IMG/VR virus record: IMGVR_UViG_3300017772_000121
Span: 1-24,596 of that record
DNA from: a virus
Reading direction: 5' to 3' (one strand)
Length of the DNA stretch: 24,596 nucleotides
Every line of letters begins with the position of its first letter. The first letter of the stretch is position 1. The translations under genes and the position numbers were made by a program. Below are positions 839 to 22,676 of this stretch, piece after piece. The notes under the pieces are model-generated. The model saw only the letters and a program-made list of their open reading frames with translations, was not told where the DNA came from and did not search any database.

Positions 839-2968
839 TTAGTATTCTTTTGCTGGTTGTCCTTTTGCTCTAATGAGCTTGTCGAGTTTTCCACGATCTA
901 CTCCTTCAAATTCATACCAAGGTATGCTTCCACCTTCAAATGCTTGGACGCCCGGAAAGTCTGCTGGAAGAACACCAGACTTTTTGCCAAACGCTTGATC
1001 GAACATACCATCTAATTGGGTTCTTGTGAATTGATACGGCTCACCGTCACTTGTTTTGTAAATAAACCGGCTTTTACCACTCGGCATTTTTTCGTATGCC
1101 ACACCAGAATATTTGGTGTGGAACCGACCTTCAGTTATGGGCATCATTTCTGTTGGGCTAAAGTTTGCGCCGGGGCGCTTTGTACCCATACCAACAACAG
1201 CCTCTAGTGTTGGGTGCGACACAACTTGGCCTGATGATCTTACCCAGCTTTCCCAATGGTATCTGCCAACAGACCCCACATCACCACGCCCAAGGCGATT
1301 ATAAAGGTCTGGCACACGATTTAATAGTGAGCGTTCAAGCGCCTCATATTGAACAAGTCCTTGTGCGCCCTCAAACTGTTTCATGATGTCGTCATAAATC
1401 TTGTCGCCACCACCCCACATTTGATTAATCTGGATGCGGTCAAGAACAACAACATCGTTTCGGCCAGATACAAGCAAAGCAAATGACATAATTTTGTTGC
1501 CGATACCTGTTCCTTCTGCAAGCGAATAATATTCGCGCCTAATTTCTTTACTGCTTTTGCTCTGGTCTGCAATCAAATTGTGCAAGCGCGTTAATGCAGA
1601 CACACCGTTTTCATCAACCGCAGACATCTTTTTTAAGAAAACCTCACCAAAATCGTTTGCGTTAGATGTGGCACTTTTGCCGGGCGCACCTTCTGGTTGT
1701 ATGCTCATTGACATTTTACGCCAAGCGGCAGTGTCTGCATCAGACCACTCGCCACGCGCTGCCTTTTGAATAAACGGTTGTGCAGCTTCCGCTAATTCAA
1801 GATATCCAGCCTCGTGTGGGAATGCCGACATACGTCTTGACAAGATAGCCCATAACATAAGTTGGCCTGTCAATTCTGGCCCAGACCCGGCGGTGTATGC
1901 GCCAACAAATTTTTGCTGTACCGCCAAACCTTCATCAGCCGCTTTGATTTGATCTGGCGTAATTTGCCCAAACCAATCAGCCCATTTTTCTGGGTTGTTT
2001 GCGTGGTCAATCATCCACGATGGCGGCATAGAAACTTCAGCTTTGTTTTGCATATTAGCAACCATAGCCGCATATGATTGCGGCGAGGCCAGCGGGTCAG
2101 GGAACTTTTGCTCAAGTTGCGTCATTACCGGCTTAACTTTTTCTGCGTTCTTTGGCGTTAGTTTAATTGGAACCAAGGACTGTTTACCTGTTCCCTCTGG
2201 CGTAAACCCATCAACCGTTACGCGATACTGCGGCGCAAGCCCGGAAACTGTTGGCGCATCAGATGCTGGCAAAAGAGTACCGGCTGGCGGCAAATCTTTA
2301 CCCATAAGCTTTTGACCAGCCACAATTGCCTCATCAACGATCTGGGTAGGGTCTACACCCATACCAAGTGTGACGCCGCTCTTGGCGTCTTCTAGGCGGG
2401 CTGGTGCGCCTGCTGCATAATCAGCAACAGCGCCAGCCCCGGCCTTAGCAGCCTGCGGCGCAACAAGACCCATCGACGCAAACTCGCCAGCTAAGTACCC
2501 TTGTTTTAAACCTTGCTTGGCTTCATCGCTAACATCCAAACTATCAACAACCCCATCAAACAAACCGCCAAGCGCCTCAGAACCAATGGTGCCAGAGATA
2601 GCGCTGAAGCCATCCAAGAACGATTGTAACCGCTCGCCCTCTTCTGCTGTAGCCGCTTTATAACCGCCATAAACTAAACCGGCAACATCTGGCAGACCAG
2701 TCACGATAGCACCGGGTACACCAACTGCTGCGCCAAGCTGTGTACCGCCAACCTCAGCTTCAGTAATTGGCGCGTCTGCTTGCTGTGAAAGCGCGTAAAT
2801 GTCGCGGTAATCACCCGCGCCAGCCGCCTGCATTTGCTCTAGAGCCATAGCCTTGTCGTAAACGCGGCGCATACGATAGGTGCCGACATCATCGCGCACA
2901 GTCTCAATTGACCCGCCGCTTTCAGCCGCGATGATAGTATTCATCATTTCTTGTGCTATATCGGTCAT
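839..2968 (-). CDS. Internal virion (ejection) protein, 709 aa, with helix-hairpin-helix motif
   Basis: The ATG at 2968 overlaps the stop of the preceding gene as ATGA. Residues 75-190 are rich in Gly/Ala with small hydrophobic stretches (GAAVGVPGAIVTGLPDVAGL), typical of segments that could insert into or cross membrane during DNA ejection. Residues 365-400 (LMLWAILSRRMSAFPHEAGY) and 484-515 together resemble an HhH-GPD DNA glycosylase fold: a GIGNK hairpin at 488-492 with Lys492, followed 18 residues later by Asp510 in VVVLDR. That is the spacing of Lys120 and Asp138 in E. coli endonuclease III. The C-terminal part has an HWESW motif near 571. The position in the tail/internal protein run says it is a virion component. 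The enzymatic reading is inference; the ejection role is the likelier part of the call. Confidence 0.7.
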   Translation of the reverse strand: MTDIAQEMMNTIIAAESGGSIETVRDDVGTYRMRRVYDKAMALEQMQAAGAGDYRDIYALSQQADAPITEAEVGGTQLGAAVGVPGAIVTGLPDVAGLVYGGYKAATAEEGERLQSFLDGFSAISGTIGSEALGGLFDGVVDSLDVSDEAKQGLKQGYLAGEFASMGLVAPQAAKAGAGAVADYAAGAPARLEDAKSGVTLGMGVDPTQIVDEAIVAGQKLMGKDLPPAGTLLPASDAPTVSGLAPQYRVTVDGFTPEGTGKQSLVPIKLTPKNAEKVKPVMTQLEQKFPDPLASPQSYAAMVANMQNKAEVSMPPSWMIDHANNPEKWADWFGQITPDQIKAADEGLAVQQKFVGAYTAGSGPELTGQLMLWAILSRRMSAFPHEAGYLELAEAAQPFIQKAARGEWSDADTAAWRKMSMSIQPEGAPGKSATSNANDFGEVFLKKMSAVDENGVSALTRLHNLIADQSKSSKEIRREYYSLAEGTGIGNKIMSFALLVSGRNDVVVLDRIQINQMWGGGDKIYDDIMKQFEGAQGLVQYEALERSLLNRVPDLYNRLGRGDVGSVGRYHWESWVRSSGQVVSHPTLEAVVGMGTKRPGANFSPTEMMPITEGRFHTKYSGVAYEKMPSGKSRFIYKTSDGEPYQFTRTQLDGMFDQAFGKKSGVLPADFPGVQAFEGGSIPWYEFEGVDRGKLDKLIRAKGQPAKEY

Positions 2969-4707
2969 TGTTCAAGTGCCGCCCGGTTGCGTTTAACAAT
3001 AGCAATCGCATCTAATAGTTTGTTGTGATTATTTTGATGATTTTGATTGTCTTCCAAAACACCTGATGATTTTAATATGATCGCATCAAGAGCTTCATCT
3101 GTGTCTGTCTTTTCACCGCCCATACGCAATTGGCTATTTTTAATTTTGTTAATTGTGCTTAGGGCTGAACTAATACCATCCTTTAATCTTTTTTGCACAT
3201 TACCCTTCTCAATAAACCCATCAGCCCAAGTCATTGGGTCTAGATTAGGAGTTATCCGCAGGGCCGCGTCTAGCTCAACCATACCCTGCATTACAAATTT
3301 TGCGGCCTCGCTTCTTTCACCTGACGCATCAAGCGTCATCATTCCAATATCAGGAACGCCAAGCGACATTTTAATTTTATCTATAGCCTCTTTTCTGGCG
3401 CTGGTTCGGTTCGTTTTTATTACAGTCAAATATTTCCTAGCACTTTCTAGCGTTATTTTTCTGGCTGCCCTCGCATTTAGAATATCCGCAGTGGTCAAAA
3501 ATCGATCCATACCCTTTTGGTCTAAAAGCAACAATGTATCTGGGTCATCATTGCCACCCTTCACAAAATACGCATCATTAAATTTTGACGCTTTATCGGG
3601 GTCTAGATTACGCAACTCAACTATCTTTGCTCGGACAATTTCATCATCAGTTTTGCCCTCAATCAAAAACTCAGTAAGTTCAATTTCTAGATCTCTTACA
3701 TTGTTCTTTCTTTCGCGCTCAATTCTAGCATCTTGCTGTGTCTCTCTTGCATACACATCATTGATTGCAGTGTTTGATCTTTTAAACGCCTCAAGACGCT
3801 CTTCTGAGTTAAGAGACATAGCAATGGTTGCAATCCCATTATCTGTAATTTTCATTTTGCCAGTCTTTAATGTATCTAAAATCTCTTGGCTGTTTTTAAG
3901 GGGATCTCGCAAAACATATTCGCCTATAGCGTTTATCTTCGCGTCACTAACAGCCTTGTCAAAATTCGCAAGAGAGTTTGTTAAAAACGCCGCGTCTTCA
4001 GTTTCGTTAGCAAATTTAATCAATTTCTCTTTTTGTTTAAGAATATGACCACCCATTTCATCTGGGCCTTTTGCCGCTGTGGTAAAGATCATACCCGGTA
4101 TGTCATCAATAATTTGATCCACGCCTTTTGCAGATAAATACTTGGCTTGCTCTTCAGCCTTTGTAGCCATCATCTTGACGTGGGTTGTGTAGGCAGTATT
4201 GCCAATGGTTGACAAGCCAAGGCGCAGTTTAGCGCCTGTCGCCGGGTCAACATCAGTCATTGCGCCGCTAAAGCCGTTAATGACACCGTCAAGCTGCCTT
4301 TGAAGATCAACAACGCTGGTAAAGTTTACATGACCCTCAACAGCTATTTGCTTAATTGCATCACGCGCTGTTATCTCAAGGTTAGCCGCAACAGTGTTTA
4401 GCGCCGCCTGACGCTCTGCTCTGCCGCGCACAGTTTCAGTGCTGCCGGGCAACAATGCTTTTCTAGCCTCGGCGTCCTCAGCTTTAATAAGATCAACAAC
4501 GCTTGGCGCATTAGCTGCGCCAAACTCAGCACCCTCAATCTTTGCTTGTGTTTCGTATTGCTGAAAAGCAAAGCGAGACATTTGGTCGAGCGATTGTGCA
4601 ATCGTGCTTGCCACCCTAGCTTGCGCTGTTCCAGTGGCAACAAAATTAACGCCGGGCAGCGATGCAATGCCGACGCCAAGTGGCCTATATTCTAGTGACC
4701 TAGCCAT
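2965..4707 (-). CDS. Internal virion protein, 580 aa, helical
   Basis: The ATG at 4707 shares a base with the stop of the gene before (TAATG), and its own stop overlaps the next start (ATGA), so three ejection genes are translationally coupled. The protein starts MARSLEYRPLGVGIASLPG, then becomes long, charged and Ala/Lys/Glu-rich, consistent with extended helices. No enzyme motif is seen. Its size and place between a gp14-like small protein and a larger ejection protein match the middle internal core protein of T7-like phages (gp15 position), but I see no clear sequence similarity to T7 gp15. The C-terminal two thirds (about 2,990-4,120) are visibly richer in A+T than the flanking genes, with many AAA/AAT/ATT codons, suggesting a different evolutionary history or relaxed codon use there. 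Confidence 0.7.
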   Translation of the reverse strand: MARSLEYRPLGVGIASLPGVNFVATGTAQARVASTIAQSLDQMSRFAFQQYETQAKIEGAEFGAANAPSVVDLIKAEDAEARKALLPGSTETVRGRAERQAALNTVAANLEITARDAIKQIAVEGHVNFTSVVDLQRQLDGVINGFSGAMTDVDPATGAKLRLGLSTIGNTAYTTHVKMMATKAEEQAKYLSAKGVDQIIDDIPGMIFTTAAKGPDEMGGHILKQKEKLIKFANETEDAAFLTNSLANFDKAVSDAKINAIGEYVLRDPLKNSQEILDTLKTGKMKITDNGIATIAMSLNSEERLEAFKRSNTAINDVYARETQQDARIERERKNNVRDLEIELTEFLIEGKTDDEIVRAKIVELRNLDPDKASKFNDAYFVKGGNDDPDTLLLLDQKGMDRFLTTADILNARAARKITLESARKYLTVIKTNRTSARKEAIDKIKMSLGVPDIGMMTLDASGERSEAAKFVMQGMVELDAALRITPNLDPMTWADGFIEKGNVQKRLKDGISSALSTINKIKNSQLRMGGEKTDTDEALDAIILKSSGVLEDNQNHQNNHNKLLDAIAIVKRNRAALEQ

Positions 4708-20802: not shown

Positions 20803-21219
20803 CTACCGCACGACCAGTGCGGCTTGGATCGGAAAATAAGCACAGATATCTGCGTCTTGGGCATCGCCCCTGTCGCCTCTGCCACCCTTCTCCAATTTGT
20901 AATCACCCGCAAAATCAAACCGGGCGATGTTATCTATATATACGTTCAGCAAATATGCTGGCAAGCCGGTGTGCTGCGTCAGCAGCCGCGCTTGTAGCAC
21001 TTTAGACAGGCTCACCATCGCTGTGTTGTACTGCAACAGCCGCACGTTACGATGCTTCACCTCAATAAATGCCTTGGCCTTGTTGTCCTTAAACACCACA
21101 AAGTCGAGGCGGTACTGCACCGGCAGCTTGTGGAAATCATAGCCGTGCGCAGCAAAGGCATCAGCTAGTGCCTGCTCTTTTGCTCTGTCGGCTGCGGTTT
21201 CGTACATTGGCCTAGCCAT
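20803..21219 (-). CDS. PD-(D/E)XK nuclease-like protein, 138 aa
   Basis: The core RLDFVVFKDNKAKAFIEVKH carries Asp39, Glu53 and Lys55 in the D-(X)n-E-X-K arrangement, with Glu15 in the preceding helix (KEQALADAF) as a possible fourth residue. This is the fold of endonuclease I, Holliday junction resolvases and VRR-type nucleases. Size suits a minimal single-domain enzyme. Start ATG at 21,219 overlaps the end of the methyltransferase gene by eight bases. Possible jobs: resolving recombination intermediates before packaging, or host DNA breakdown. Neither is decided by sequence. Confidence 0.7.
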   Translation of the reverse strand: MARPMYETAADRAKEQALADAFAAHGYDFHKLPVQYRLDFVVFKDNKAKAFIEVKHRNVRLLQYNTAMVSLSKVLQARLLTQHTGLPAYLLNVYIDNIARFDFAGDYKLEKGGRGDRGDAQDADICAYFPIQAALVVR

Positions 21220-22249
21220 TGTGCGCCTCCTTGATAGCCCACAATATCCGCGCCGCCACTTGCGGCACGATACTATTCCCTAACTGTCTAAGTCTGTGTA
21301 CCCGACCGGGTACCCCATTAGCCACTCGACCCACGCTGGGTTCAGGCTCCCAGAAACTCTTTTGCCATCTGGCTTCTCCACGGCGTAATCCAGCCGATCC
21401 CTCATCGTCTCGTTTCTGCCCGACCCCTTGAAGTCGTTGGCTGTCGGCGTTGGGTACATCTTTATCTGATCCGCTAGGTTCGCCCCAAACACCAAATTGG
21501 GATTTGTCTTGCTGATCCTTTGACCCTTCTCGTTCAGTGTCCTGCCGGATGTCACATCTGATGTTCTCGGCGTTGCCCACAGATTCGGCTCCGCTACTTG
21601 ATCCCTCAGATTGCTCGATCTCTTGCGTCTTCCTGTCAGGCTCTCTTTGTACGCGCCCGATATCCCTGACGGCAGATGATCCATCGTGTTTGGCGTAGCC
21701 CATAACGGCTCGTTCCAGCCGCTGTTCATCGACGGCGCTAACTGGTTCGCCTTCGCGGTCGGCGTATGCAATAACCCAGCATCTGTCTCTGCGGTGGCAG
21801 GCATCTGCGGCGACAGCCGGTATAACAAAGCACCTTGCTTGGTAGTGCGAATTTTCCAAGTCAGATAGCACCTCGTCGAGGCCCATAGAGATGTGGCCAG
21901 CAACGTTTTCTCCAATAACCCAAGTCGGCCGGACAGCTTGGATAATTCTAAGCATTTCCGGCCAGAGGTGTCGGTCATCTTTATCGCCTCTTCTGACCCC
22001 GGCAAGCGAGAAAGGCTGGCAAGGATATCCGCCGCAAATAATGTCAACTGATCCTCTGAATCTTTCTGCGTCATTCGCTAACTCCCTCACGTCATCAATT
22101 ATCTCTGTATCTGGCCAATGCTTTCGCAAAACCCTTTGGCAATGCTTGTCATATTCGCAAAAGGCCACTGTTTCATACCCACCAACCAGCTTTTCGCCAG
22201 CATAACTAAACCCGCCAATGCCGGAAAATAGATCAAGCATCCTAAGCAT
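21212..22249 (-). CDS. C5 cytosine DNA methyltransferase, 345 aa
   Basis: Transfers a methyl group from S-adenosylmethionine to cytosine C5. Motif I DLFSGIGGFS (6-15), motif IV GGYPCQPFS with the catalytic Cys77, motif VI GENV (113-116), motif VIII-like CHRRDRCWVIAY (151-162) and motif X LGNSIVPQVA (323-332) are all present, so the enzyme looks intact. The target recognition part (about 165-300) is unusually hydrophilic and rich in Glu, Asp, Gln, Ser and Arg. It coincides with a second long frame on the same strand. The ATG at 22,249 is used; ATG at 22,240 would remove three residues. It is translationally chained with nuclease genes on both sides. The recognition sequence cannot be predicted. 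Confidence 0.92.
   Translation of the reverse strand: MLRMLDLFSGIGGFSYAGEKLVGGYETVAFCEYDKHCQRVLRKHWPDTEIIDDVRELANDAERFRGSVDIICGGYPCQPFSLAGVRRGDKDDRHLWPEMLRIIQAVRPTWVIGENVAGHISMGLDEVLSDLENSHYQARCFVIPAVAADACHRRDRCWVIAYADREGEPVSAVDEQRLERAVMGYAKHDGSSAVRDIGRVQREPDRKTQEIEQSEGSSSGAESVGNAENIRCDIRQDTEREGSKDQQDKSQFGVWGEPSGSDKDVPNADSQRLQGVGQKRDDEGSAGLRRGEARWQKSFWEPEPSVGRVANGVPGRVHRLRQLGNSIVPQVAARILWAIKEAHNG
21280..22074 (-). CDS. Overlapping ORF inside the methyltransferase gene, 264 aa
   Basis: The frame is +1 relative to the methyltransferase and lies wholly inside it (its residues 59-323). ATG at 22,074 has GGAG exactly seven bases upstream. The protein contains MTDTSGRKCLELSKLSGRLG, then LWASTRCYLTWK (63-74). 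Four spaced motifs of the form hydrophobic-aromatic/His-x-T-P follow: LLHTPTAK 101, LWATPNTMD 124, LWATPRTSD 165, MYPTPTAND 206. It ends SLNPAWVEWLMGYPVGYTDL (243-262). I recognise these blocks (SGxKCLE, STRCxLTWK, TPxxxD, LNPxWVEWLMGxP) from many phage proteins found with C5 methyltransferases, often annotated as hypothetical or as methyltransferase. Function unknown; it could also be a passively open frame. Confidence 0.6.
   Translation of the reverse strand: MTQKDSEDQLTLFAADILASLSRLPGSEEAIKMTDTSGRKCLELSKLSGRLGLLEKTLLATSLWASTRCYLTWKIRTTKQGALLYRLSPQMPATAETDAGLLHTPTAKANQLAPSMNSGWNEPLWATPNTMDHLPSGISGAYKESLTGRRKRSSNLRDQVAEPNLWATPRTSDVTSGRTLNEKGQRISKTNPNLVFGANLADQIKMYPTPTANDFKGSGRNETMRDRLDYAVEKPDGKRVSGSLNPAWVEWLMGYPVGYTDLDS
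22082..22085 (-). promoter_or_regulatory. Ribosome-binding site internal to the methyltransferase gene
   Basis: GGAG on the - strand (within GAGGGAG) is seven bases before the ATG at 22,074 of the overlapping frame. It codes for Arg-Glu of the methyltransferase, so chance is possible, but strength and spacing are as good as at any gene here. Confidence 0.55.
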
Positions 22250-22676
22250 CAGCTAGATGCTCTCTGATGACCATCATCGCTGTCATCTGGTCGCACTCGA
22301 CCGCGTAACGCCAATCGTATTGCTCGTGGATGTCACCCGCTGGCAGGTAATTGTCCATACCGGCAACAGCAGCAACCGGGAAGCGCCAGCGGATTGGCAA
22401 GCGGTCGTACTTGTAAACCAGCAATGGCAGCTTGTGTGTCGCCAATGCACTAGCGCAGCACTGATCCCACCAAGCGGGCTGGATGCCGTACCCGGCGCGA
22501 TACCTCTTTGCCTCAATGCTGAAGGGAAAGTCAGGCATTTCGACGCAGATCAGATCGCCGTGATCAGCAGCGCGATACTGCTCTATGTCGCGCTTGAACG
22601 TCAGGCCAAGCTCTTCAAACAACAGCTTGGCAAGCTCGCGCTCAAAGCTGGCACCCTTGTTTCGGCTGTTAACCAT
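22242..22676 (-). CDS. PD-(D/E)XK phage endonuclease, 144 aa
   Basis: The N-terminal NKGASFERELAKLL helix with Glu12 and Glu14, then AADHGDLICVEMPDFPFSIE and AKRYRAG give Asp41, Glu55 and Lys57, the PD-(D/E)XK catalytic set. The following QPAWWDQC with Gln66 resembles the usual downstream helix of phage resolvase-like nucleases of this type. It may be a Holliday junction resolvase or another structure-specific enzyme. The start ATG at 22,676 overlaps the previous stop region, and the stop lies inside the beginning of the methyltransferase gene. Confidence 0.78.
   Translation of the reverse strand: MVNSRNKGASFERELAKLLFEELGLTFKRDIEQYRAADHGDLICVEMPDFPFSIEAKRYRAGYGIQPAWWDQCCASALATHKLPLLVYKYDRLPIRWRFPVAAVAGMDNYLPAGDIHEQYDWRYAVECDQMTAMMVIREHLADA

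What the first reader, a model, noticed from the sequence alone, without database searches (positions are those of the whole stretch)
21280..22074. A 264-codon second gene appears overprinted inside the C5 methyltransferase gene
Seen: a same-strand +1 frame covers 77% of the methyltransferase gene, has its own GGAG site seven bases before ATG, and carries coherent blocks (SGRKCLE, STRCYLTWK, LNPAWVEWLMGYP) plus a repeated TP motif. Known to me: similar blocks recur in many phage proteins found with methyltransferases. Inference: both frames are used, giving a linked accessory protein of unknown function, perhaps an enzyme partner or a defence-related factor. The alternative is passive openness enforced by methyltransferase codons.
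Basis: partly seen in the sequence, partly recalled or inferred. Interest (0 to 1): 0.78.

Follow-up and report, generated by a model that had tools for sequence, protein, structure and literature searches.

The report
Nested second subunit of phage methyltransferase
A phage DNA-methylating enzyme gene really does contain a second gene read in another frame, and that hidden gene most likely makes the enzyme's missing DNA-recognition half, an arrangement known from one studied bacterial enzyme but here conserved across hundreds of phages and many bacterial phyla.

Summary
On the minus strand, the 264-codon +1 ORF (21280-22074) lies inside a C5-methyltransferase gene (21212-22249), with GGAG seven bases before its ATG. 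It is a real gene. All 78 viral loci fetched by methyltransferase similarity carry a homologous +1 ORF. In that set the +1 frame has 10 stops where synonymous-codon shuffling predicts 428. Excess +1 conservation starts and ends with the ORF. Methyltransferase third-position changes fall from 0.43 to 0.24 inside the overlap. Six classical and ten single-chain methyltransferases show no such stop depletion.

Function: the outer protein (alpha) has motifs I-VIII and X, but no recognisable target-recognition region or motif IX. The nested protein (beta) has TP repeats ending in LNPxWVEWLMGYPxGWTDL. In many actinophages the same TP-repeat/motif-IX segment sits in the same chain, between motifs VIII and X (profile match E 1e-13). 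Beta is therefore most likely the small-domain subunit of a two-subunit enzyme.

The layout matches M.EcoHK31I (alpha I-VIII and X; beta IX). Sequence relationship to M.EcoHK31I could not be tested. Translation and activity are not shown. New points are the breadth, the reciprocal overprinting, and motif IX read from the same DNA as the segment before motif X.

The parts
21212..22249 (-). alpha: C5-methyltransferase large subunit, motifs I-VIII, hydrophilic linker, motif X
   Evidence: PF00145 2.9e-37; phmmer to M.HhaI covers residues 2-163 only
21280..22074 (-). beta: nested +1-frame gene, 264 codons; predicted target-recognition / motif IX subunit
   Evidence: PHROG 1008 E 5e-35; conserved in 78/78 alpha-fetched loci; constraint tests
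22082..22085 (-). Shine-Dalgarno GGAG, 7 bases before the beta ATG
   Evidence: SD of at least 4 bases before the beta start in 88% of 78 homologues against 46% in synonymous shuffles
22016..22024 (-). alpha motif IV catalytic PCQ
21790..22002 (-). beta N-block (PGSEEAIKMTDTSG ... CYLTWKIRTTKQGALLYRLSPQMP), overprinted on alpha motifs IV-VIII
   Evidence: invariant W73, K74, L87 in 94 homologues; AlphaFold pLDDT mostly 70-88, helix-helix-hairpin
21415..21774 (-). beta TP-repeat variable region (four TP units), overprinted with the alpha linker
   Evidence: equivalent segment lies in frame between motifs VIII and IX in fused enzymes
21289..21348 (-). beta motif IX (SLNPAWVEWLMGYPVGYTDL); the same DNA reads as part of SVGRVANGVPGRVHRLRQL in alpha
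   Evidence: hhalign to fused C5-MTases E 9.8e-14; colinear with M.HhaI 274-307 (weak on its own)
21248..21286 (-). alpha motif X (LGNSIVPQVAARI)

Best explanation
The window encodes a two-subunit phage C5-cytosine methyltransferase from one stretch of DNA read in two frames. Alpha is the catalytic and AdoMet-binding domain (motifs I-VIII and X). Beta, translated from its own start inside alpha in the +1 frame, is the small domain in trans: an N-terminal block, a TP-repeat variable region in the position of the target-recognition domain, and motif IX. The two polypeptides assemble to give a sequence-specific methylase. In a phage its probable use is modifying its own DNA against host restriction. 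Shown here: dual coding constraint, conservation, and homology of beta to the variable/IX segment of single-chain enzymes. Inferred: translation, assembly, DNA recognition by the TP region, and biological role.
For: 1. All 78 loci fetched by alpha similarity carry beta in +1. Of 169 loci (mostly beta-fetched), 164 have the +1 overlap and 5 have beta running on through motif X. 2. +1 stops: 10 seen against 427.6 expected in 73 genes; the +2 frame has 1072 against 1161. 3. +1 similarity exceeds the synonymous null only over alpha residues about 61-320, matching beta at 59-322, and beats alpha's own conservation in 221-240, 261-280 and 301-320. 4. In 198 close pairs, alpha third-position changes fall from 0.43 outside to 0.24 inside the overlap, and first-position changes (beta third) rise from 0.17 to 0.265. 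5. RBS enrichment 88% against 46%. 6. Alpha matches M.HhaI only over motifs I-VIII. 7. 51 loci of the actinophage scan have a single ORF with the MTase N-terminal motifs in front of the beta-like segment; the examples read show I-VIII, TP repeats, W-M-M-G-x-P-x-G-W, then GN-V-V-P. Nested beta matches their profile at E 9.8e-14. The predicted fused structure (pTM 0.71) aligns with M.HhaI over about 390 columns. 8. Classical and fused MTases show no +1 stop depletion. 9. In L047, L051, L060, L103 and L132 alpha ends after motif VIII and beta continues through motif X. 10. M.EcoHK31I is a biochemical precedent with motif IX on the smaller polypeptide (PMC3404938).
Against: No expression or activity data. 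AlphaFold of beta alone is weak (pLDDT 65, pTM 0.34) with no PDB fold match. The TP region is predicted with low confidence, as if disordered, in the fused model and only moderately in the beta model, so its role in recognition rests on position. The N-block is not seen in the fused enzymes read, so its function is unexplained. Direct sequence similarity of motif IX to M.HhaI is weak on its own. The alpha-fetched set was found with a query alignment whose members all have beta.
Confidence: 0.86

Rival explanations
1. Passive openness: the +1 frame is open and looks conserved only because MTase codons force it.
For: The two frames share nucleotides, and motifs IV-VIII of alpha are conserved.
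Against: Synonymous shuffling removes both openness and +1 similarity. The +1 excess begins and ends with beta. Classical and fused MTases have +1 stops near expectation. The beta C-block is more conserved than alpha there.
Confidence: 0.01
2. The +1 frame is reached mainly by ribosomal frameshifting, giving an alpha(I-VIII)-TP-IX fusion rather than, or as well as, a free beta subunit.
For: Single-chain enzymes with exactly that domain order exist. In L047-type loci alpha ends soon after motif VIII.
Against: Beta has its own start with an enriched RBS and an N-block overlapping motifs IV-VIII that a frameshift product would not need, yet which is strongly conserved. No slippery site was searched for.
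Confidence: 0.07
3. Beta is an unrelated overprinted protein (regulator, anti-restriction or defence factor) that merely travels with the MTase.
For: No Pfam or NCBIfam match; the N-block has no known homologue.
Against: Its variable and C-terminal part is homologous to the in-chain segment of fused C5-MTases, alpha lacks exactly that part, and in some loci beta also carries motif X.
Confidence: 0.05

Closest known systems
M.EcoHK31I (YGGCCR), two-polypeptide C5-MTase
   Same: Larger subunit has motifs I-VIII and X, smaller has motif IX (PMC3404938); both proteins are required in vitro (title of Lee et al. 1995, cited there). From memory, its smaller polypeptide is also encoded in another frame within the larger.
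   Different: The TRD was assigned to the larger subunit there; here the variable TP region lies in beta.
M.AquI (CYCGRG), two-subunit C5-MTase
   Same: Enzyme split after motif VIII within the variable region; IX on the second subunit (PMC3404938). The L047-type loci resemble this.
   Different: In the window motif X is on alpha, and the two genes overlap over nearly the whole of beta.
Single-chain TP-repeat C5-MTases of actinophages (e.g. L276, L284, L347)
   Same: Homologous TP-repeat and motif IX segment (E 9.8e-14).
   Different: One ORF, no N-block seen, no +1 stop depletion.
PHROG 1008 ('DNA methyltransferase')
   Same: Beta matches at E 5e-35; the family spans nested and split beta proteins.
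   Different: The label names an enzyme, but the members tested lack catalytic motifs I-VIII.
M.HhaI / classical monomeric C5-MTase
   Same: Alpha motifs I-VIII; fold of the fused form.
   Different: The classical enzyme has TRD and motif IX in frame in one chain.

Membership tests
M.EcoHK31I-type overlapping two-subunit C5-MTase | Larger polypeptide holds motifs I-VIII and X | tested here: met
   M.HhaI match over residues 2-163; GN motif X at residues 324-325
M.EcoHK31I-type overlapping two-subunit C5-MTase | Smaller polypeptide holds motif IX | tested here: met
   hhalign to fused C5-MTases E 9.8e-14; M.HhaI colinearity weak on its own
M.EcoHK31I-type overlapping two-subunit C5-MTase | Smaller polypeptide encoded in another frame within the larger (recalled, not read here) | tested here: met
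   +1 nested ORF under constraint
M.EcoHK31I-type overlapping two-subunit C5-MTase | Sequence homology to M.EcoHK31I alpha and beta | not testable with these tools
   Sequence not available; the original paper is not held
M.EcoHK31I-type overlapping two-subunit C5-MTase | Both polypeptides needed for activity; specificity YGGCCR | not testable with these tools
   Needs biochemistry
M.AquI-type split C5-MTase | Motifs IX and X both on the second subunit | tested here: not met
   Motif X is on alpha in the window; met only in the L047-type loci
Classical monomeric C5-MTase | TRD and motif IX in frame with I-VIII and X | tested here: not met
   Alpha matches M.HhaI only over I-VIII; the IX-like sequence is in the +1 frame
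PHROG 1008 | Profile match | tested here: met
   E 5e-35

The most novel reading that the evidence does not exclude
A large, ancient class of phage and prophage C5-methyltransferases built by reciprocal overprinting. The N-block of beta arose over alpha's catalytic motifs, and alpha's linker arose over beta's recognition region. Motif IX and the segment before motif X came to be read from the same nucleotides in two frames. The variable-number TP units act as exchangeable recognition modules, and fused single-chain forms mark repeated entry to or exit from the overlap.
Probability: 0.35. Interest if true: 0.82.

Novelty: new member of a known kind. Interest (0 to 1): 0.62.

Why it matters
Long same-strand overlapping genes with strong comparative proof are few in phages and bacteria. 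This one has hundreds of homologous pairs, plus natural single-chain and split versions to compare. It explains why annotators list two 'methyltransferases' at one place or drop one of them. It predicts that many phage C5-methylases cloned as the alpha gene alone, or recoded for expression, would be inactive because beta is destroyed. It also offers a system for studying how one DNA sequence keeps two interacting protein domains.

Tried and rejected
Pfam and NCBIfam gave nothing for beta, nor did the PDB by sequence profile. AlphaFold of beta alone was weak and had no PDB match, so the fused relative was modelled instead.

The plasmid search was made by mistake with the alpha frame of L007, not beta. 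The small-plasmid hits next to NgoMIV-family endonucleases (L354, L356) are classical single-chain MTases without beta and were kept only as negative controls.

The stop count defined its region by the ORF itself and is circular for the observed value; it was replaced by the region-independent count.

Literature searches for nested or overlapping methyltransferase genes returned nothing on this family. M.EcoHK31I is mentioned in four held papers; the primary paper is not held. That an annotator called the frame an 'internal gene' in phage Lily, and that others annotated two overlapping methyltransferases at the place, are the only signs found that it was noticed. Papers on Paenibacillus larvae phages were searched for the relevant words and do not discuss the overlap in the passages found.

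Full report
What is there. The C5-methyltransferase gene (alpha, 21212-22249, minus strand) contains a second ORF (beta, 21280-22074, same strand, +1) of 264 codons with GGAG seven bases before its ATG. The record is a virus fragment of 24,596 bases with head, connector, tail and terminase genes. Alpha overlaps a PDDEXK-family gene by 8 bases on each side.

Is it a gene? For the window alone, 1 in 20,000 synonymous shuffles leaves the stretch open. The comparative test is stronger. I fetched 80 loci (78 new) by alpha similarity; all 78 new ones carry a beta homologue in +1 with E of 3e-25 or better. In 73 genes (the window and 72 of these), between the catalytic PCQ and the motif X GN, the +1 frame has 10 stops against 427.6 expected, while the +2 frame has 1072 against 1161. 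Column-wise similarity in +1 exceeds the shuffle null only from about alpha residue 61 to 320, the extent of beta (59-322). In residues 221-240, 261-280 and 301-320 beta is better conserved than alpha. In 198 close pairs, alpha third codon positions change in 43% of codons before beta, 42% after it and 24% inside it, while first positions (beta third positions) rise from 17% to 26.5%. The beta start has a Shine-Dalgarno match of at least 4 bases in 88% of 78 loci against 46% in shuffles; the start was chosen partly by that score, which favours the observed value. Six classical MTases and ten fused MTases show +1 stops near expectation.

Who has it? tblastn finds the +1 product in 71 phage records, including Paenibacillus, Lactobacillus, Escherichia and Acinetobacter phages. 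The viral scan gave at least 519 relatives and the bacterial genome scan 314, among them Bacillota, Pseudomonadota, Bacteroidota, Acidobacteriota, Nitrospirota, Spirochaetota and others by record title. Of 169 loci examined, 164 have the +1 overlap. In the other five, alpha stops after motif VIII and beta runs on through motif X.

What is beta? It has three parts: an N-block over alpha motifs IV-VIII, a variable region with one to five TP units (four in the window), and the C-block LNPxWVEWLMGYPxGWTDL. Alpha matches M.HhaI only over motifs I-VIII. A scan with split actinophage beta proteins found 51 loci in which one ORF carries the MTase N-terminal motifs ahead of the beta-like segment. The examples read show motifs I-VIII, TP repeats, the W-M-M-G-x-P-x-G-W motif and motif X in one frame. 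The nested beta profile matches this fused profile at E 9.8e-14, 98%. The fused protein is modelled with pTM 0.71, its C-terminal part at pLDDT 93-97, and aligns with M.HhaI over about 390 columns (Foldseek E 1.4e-13). The C-block lines up with motif IX of classical enzymes (E 7e-4, weak). Beta is thus the segment that a classical enzyme carries between motifs VIII and X.

How it most likely works. Alpha binds AdoMet and carries the catalytic cysteine; beta provides the small domain and motif IX. By analogy with M.EcoHK31I, where motif IX is on the smaller polypeptide (PMC3404938), the two assemble into the active enzyme. Assembly, specificity and use by the phage are inferred.

Overprinting. 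Over the catalytic region the alpha sequence is the universal one, so the N-block of beta is probably the later arrival. Over the variable region and motif IX the beta sequence is the one shared with single-chain enzymes, so the alpha linker is probably the later arrival. In 59 of 71 loci motif IX of beta and the alpha segment RVAxGVPxRVxRL before motif X come from the same nucleotides, typically with 11.7 codons from MGxP to GN; in 12 the two are further apart. The order of events was not tested with a tree.

Novelty. The kind, a two-subunit C5-MTase with motif IX on the second chain, is known. I found no paper describing this family or its breadth in the library held, which lacks most subscription journals. 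I file it as a new member of a known kind, with sequence membership in M.EcoHK31I untested.

Noticed in passing
L047, L051, L060, L103, L132: Split layout: alpha ends shortly after motif VIII and beta, starting inside alpha in +1, carries motif IX and motif X in series.
   Followed up: yes
L251:2152-2571 (Streptococcus phage P0092): A +1 ORF inside a classical single-chain C5-MTase is also annotated as 'DNA methyltransferase'. By eye it resembles part of the actinophage-type beta N-block; overall +1 stop depletion is slight (5 against 8.4 expected).
   Followed up: partly
L123-L127 (Roseovarius), L115-L117 (Lihuaxuella): Five and three apparently identical copies of the alpha/beta pair in one genome, presumably repeated prophages.
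   Followed up: no
window 20803-21219 and 22242-22676: Two putative PDDEXK nucleases (PF24579, PF24608) flank alpha/beta, each overlapping alpha by 8 bases; homologues of one or the other are present in several close relatives (L010, L011, L013-L015, L025, L181).
   Followed up: partly
L225 and L233: L225 alpha has an in-frame stop in the linker; L233 appears to have an indel that shifts both frames together. Sequencing error or decay not distinguished.
   Followed up: no
window 842-4707: Two large ORFs (709 and 580 aa) without any PHROG match at 1e-4.
   Followed up: no
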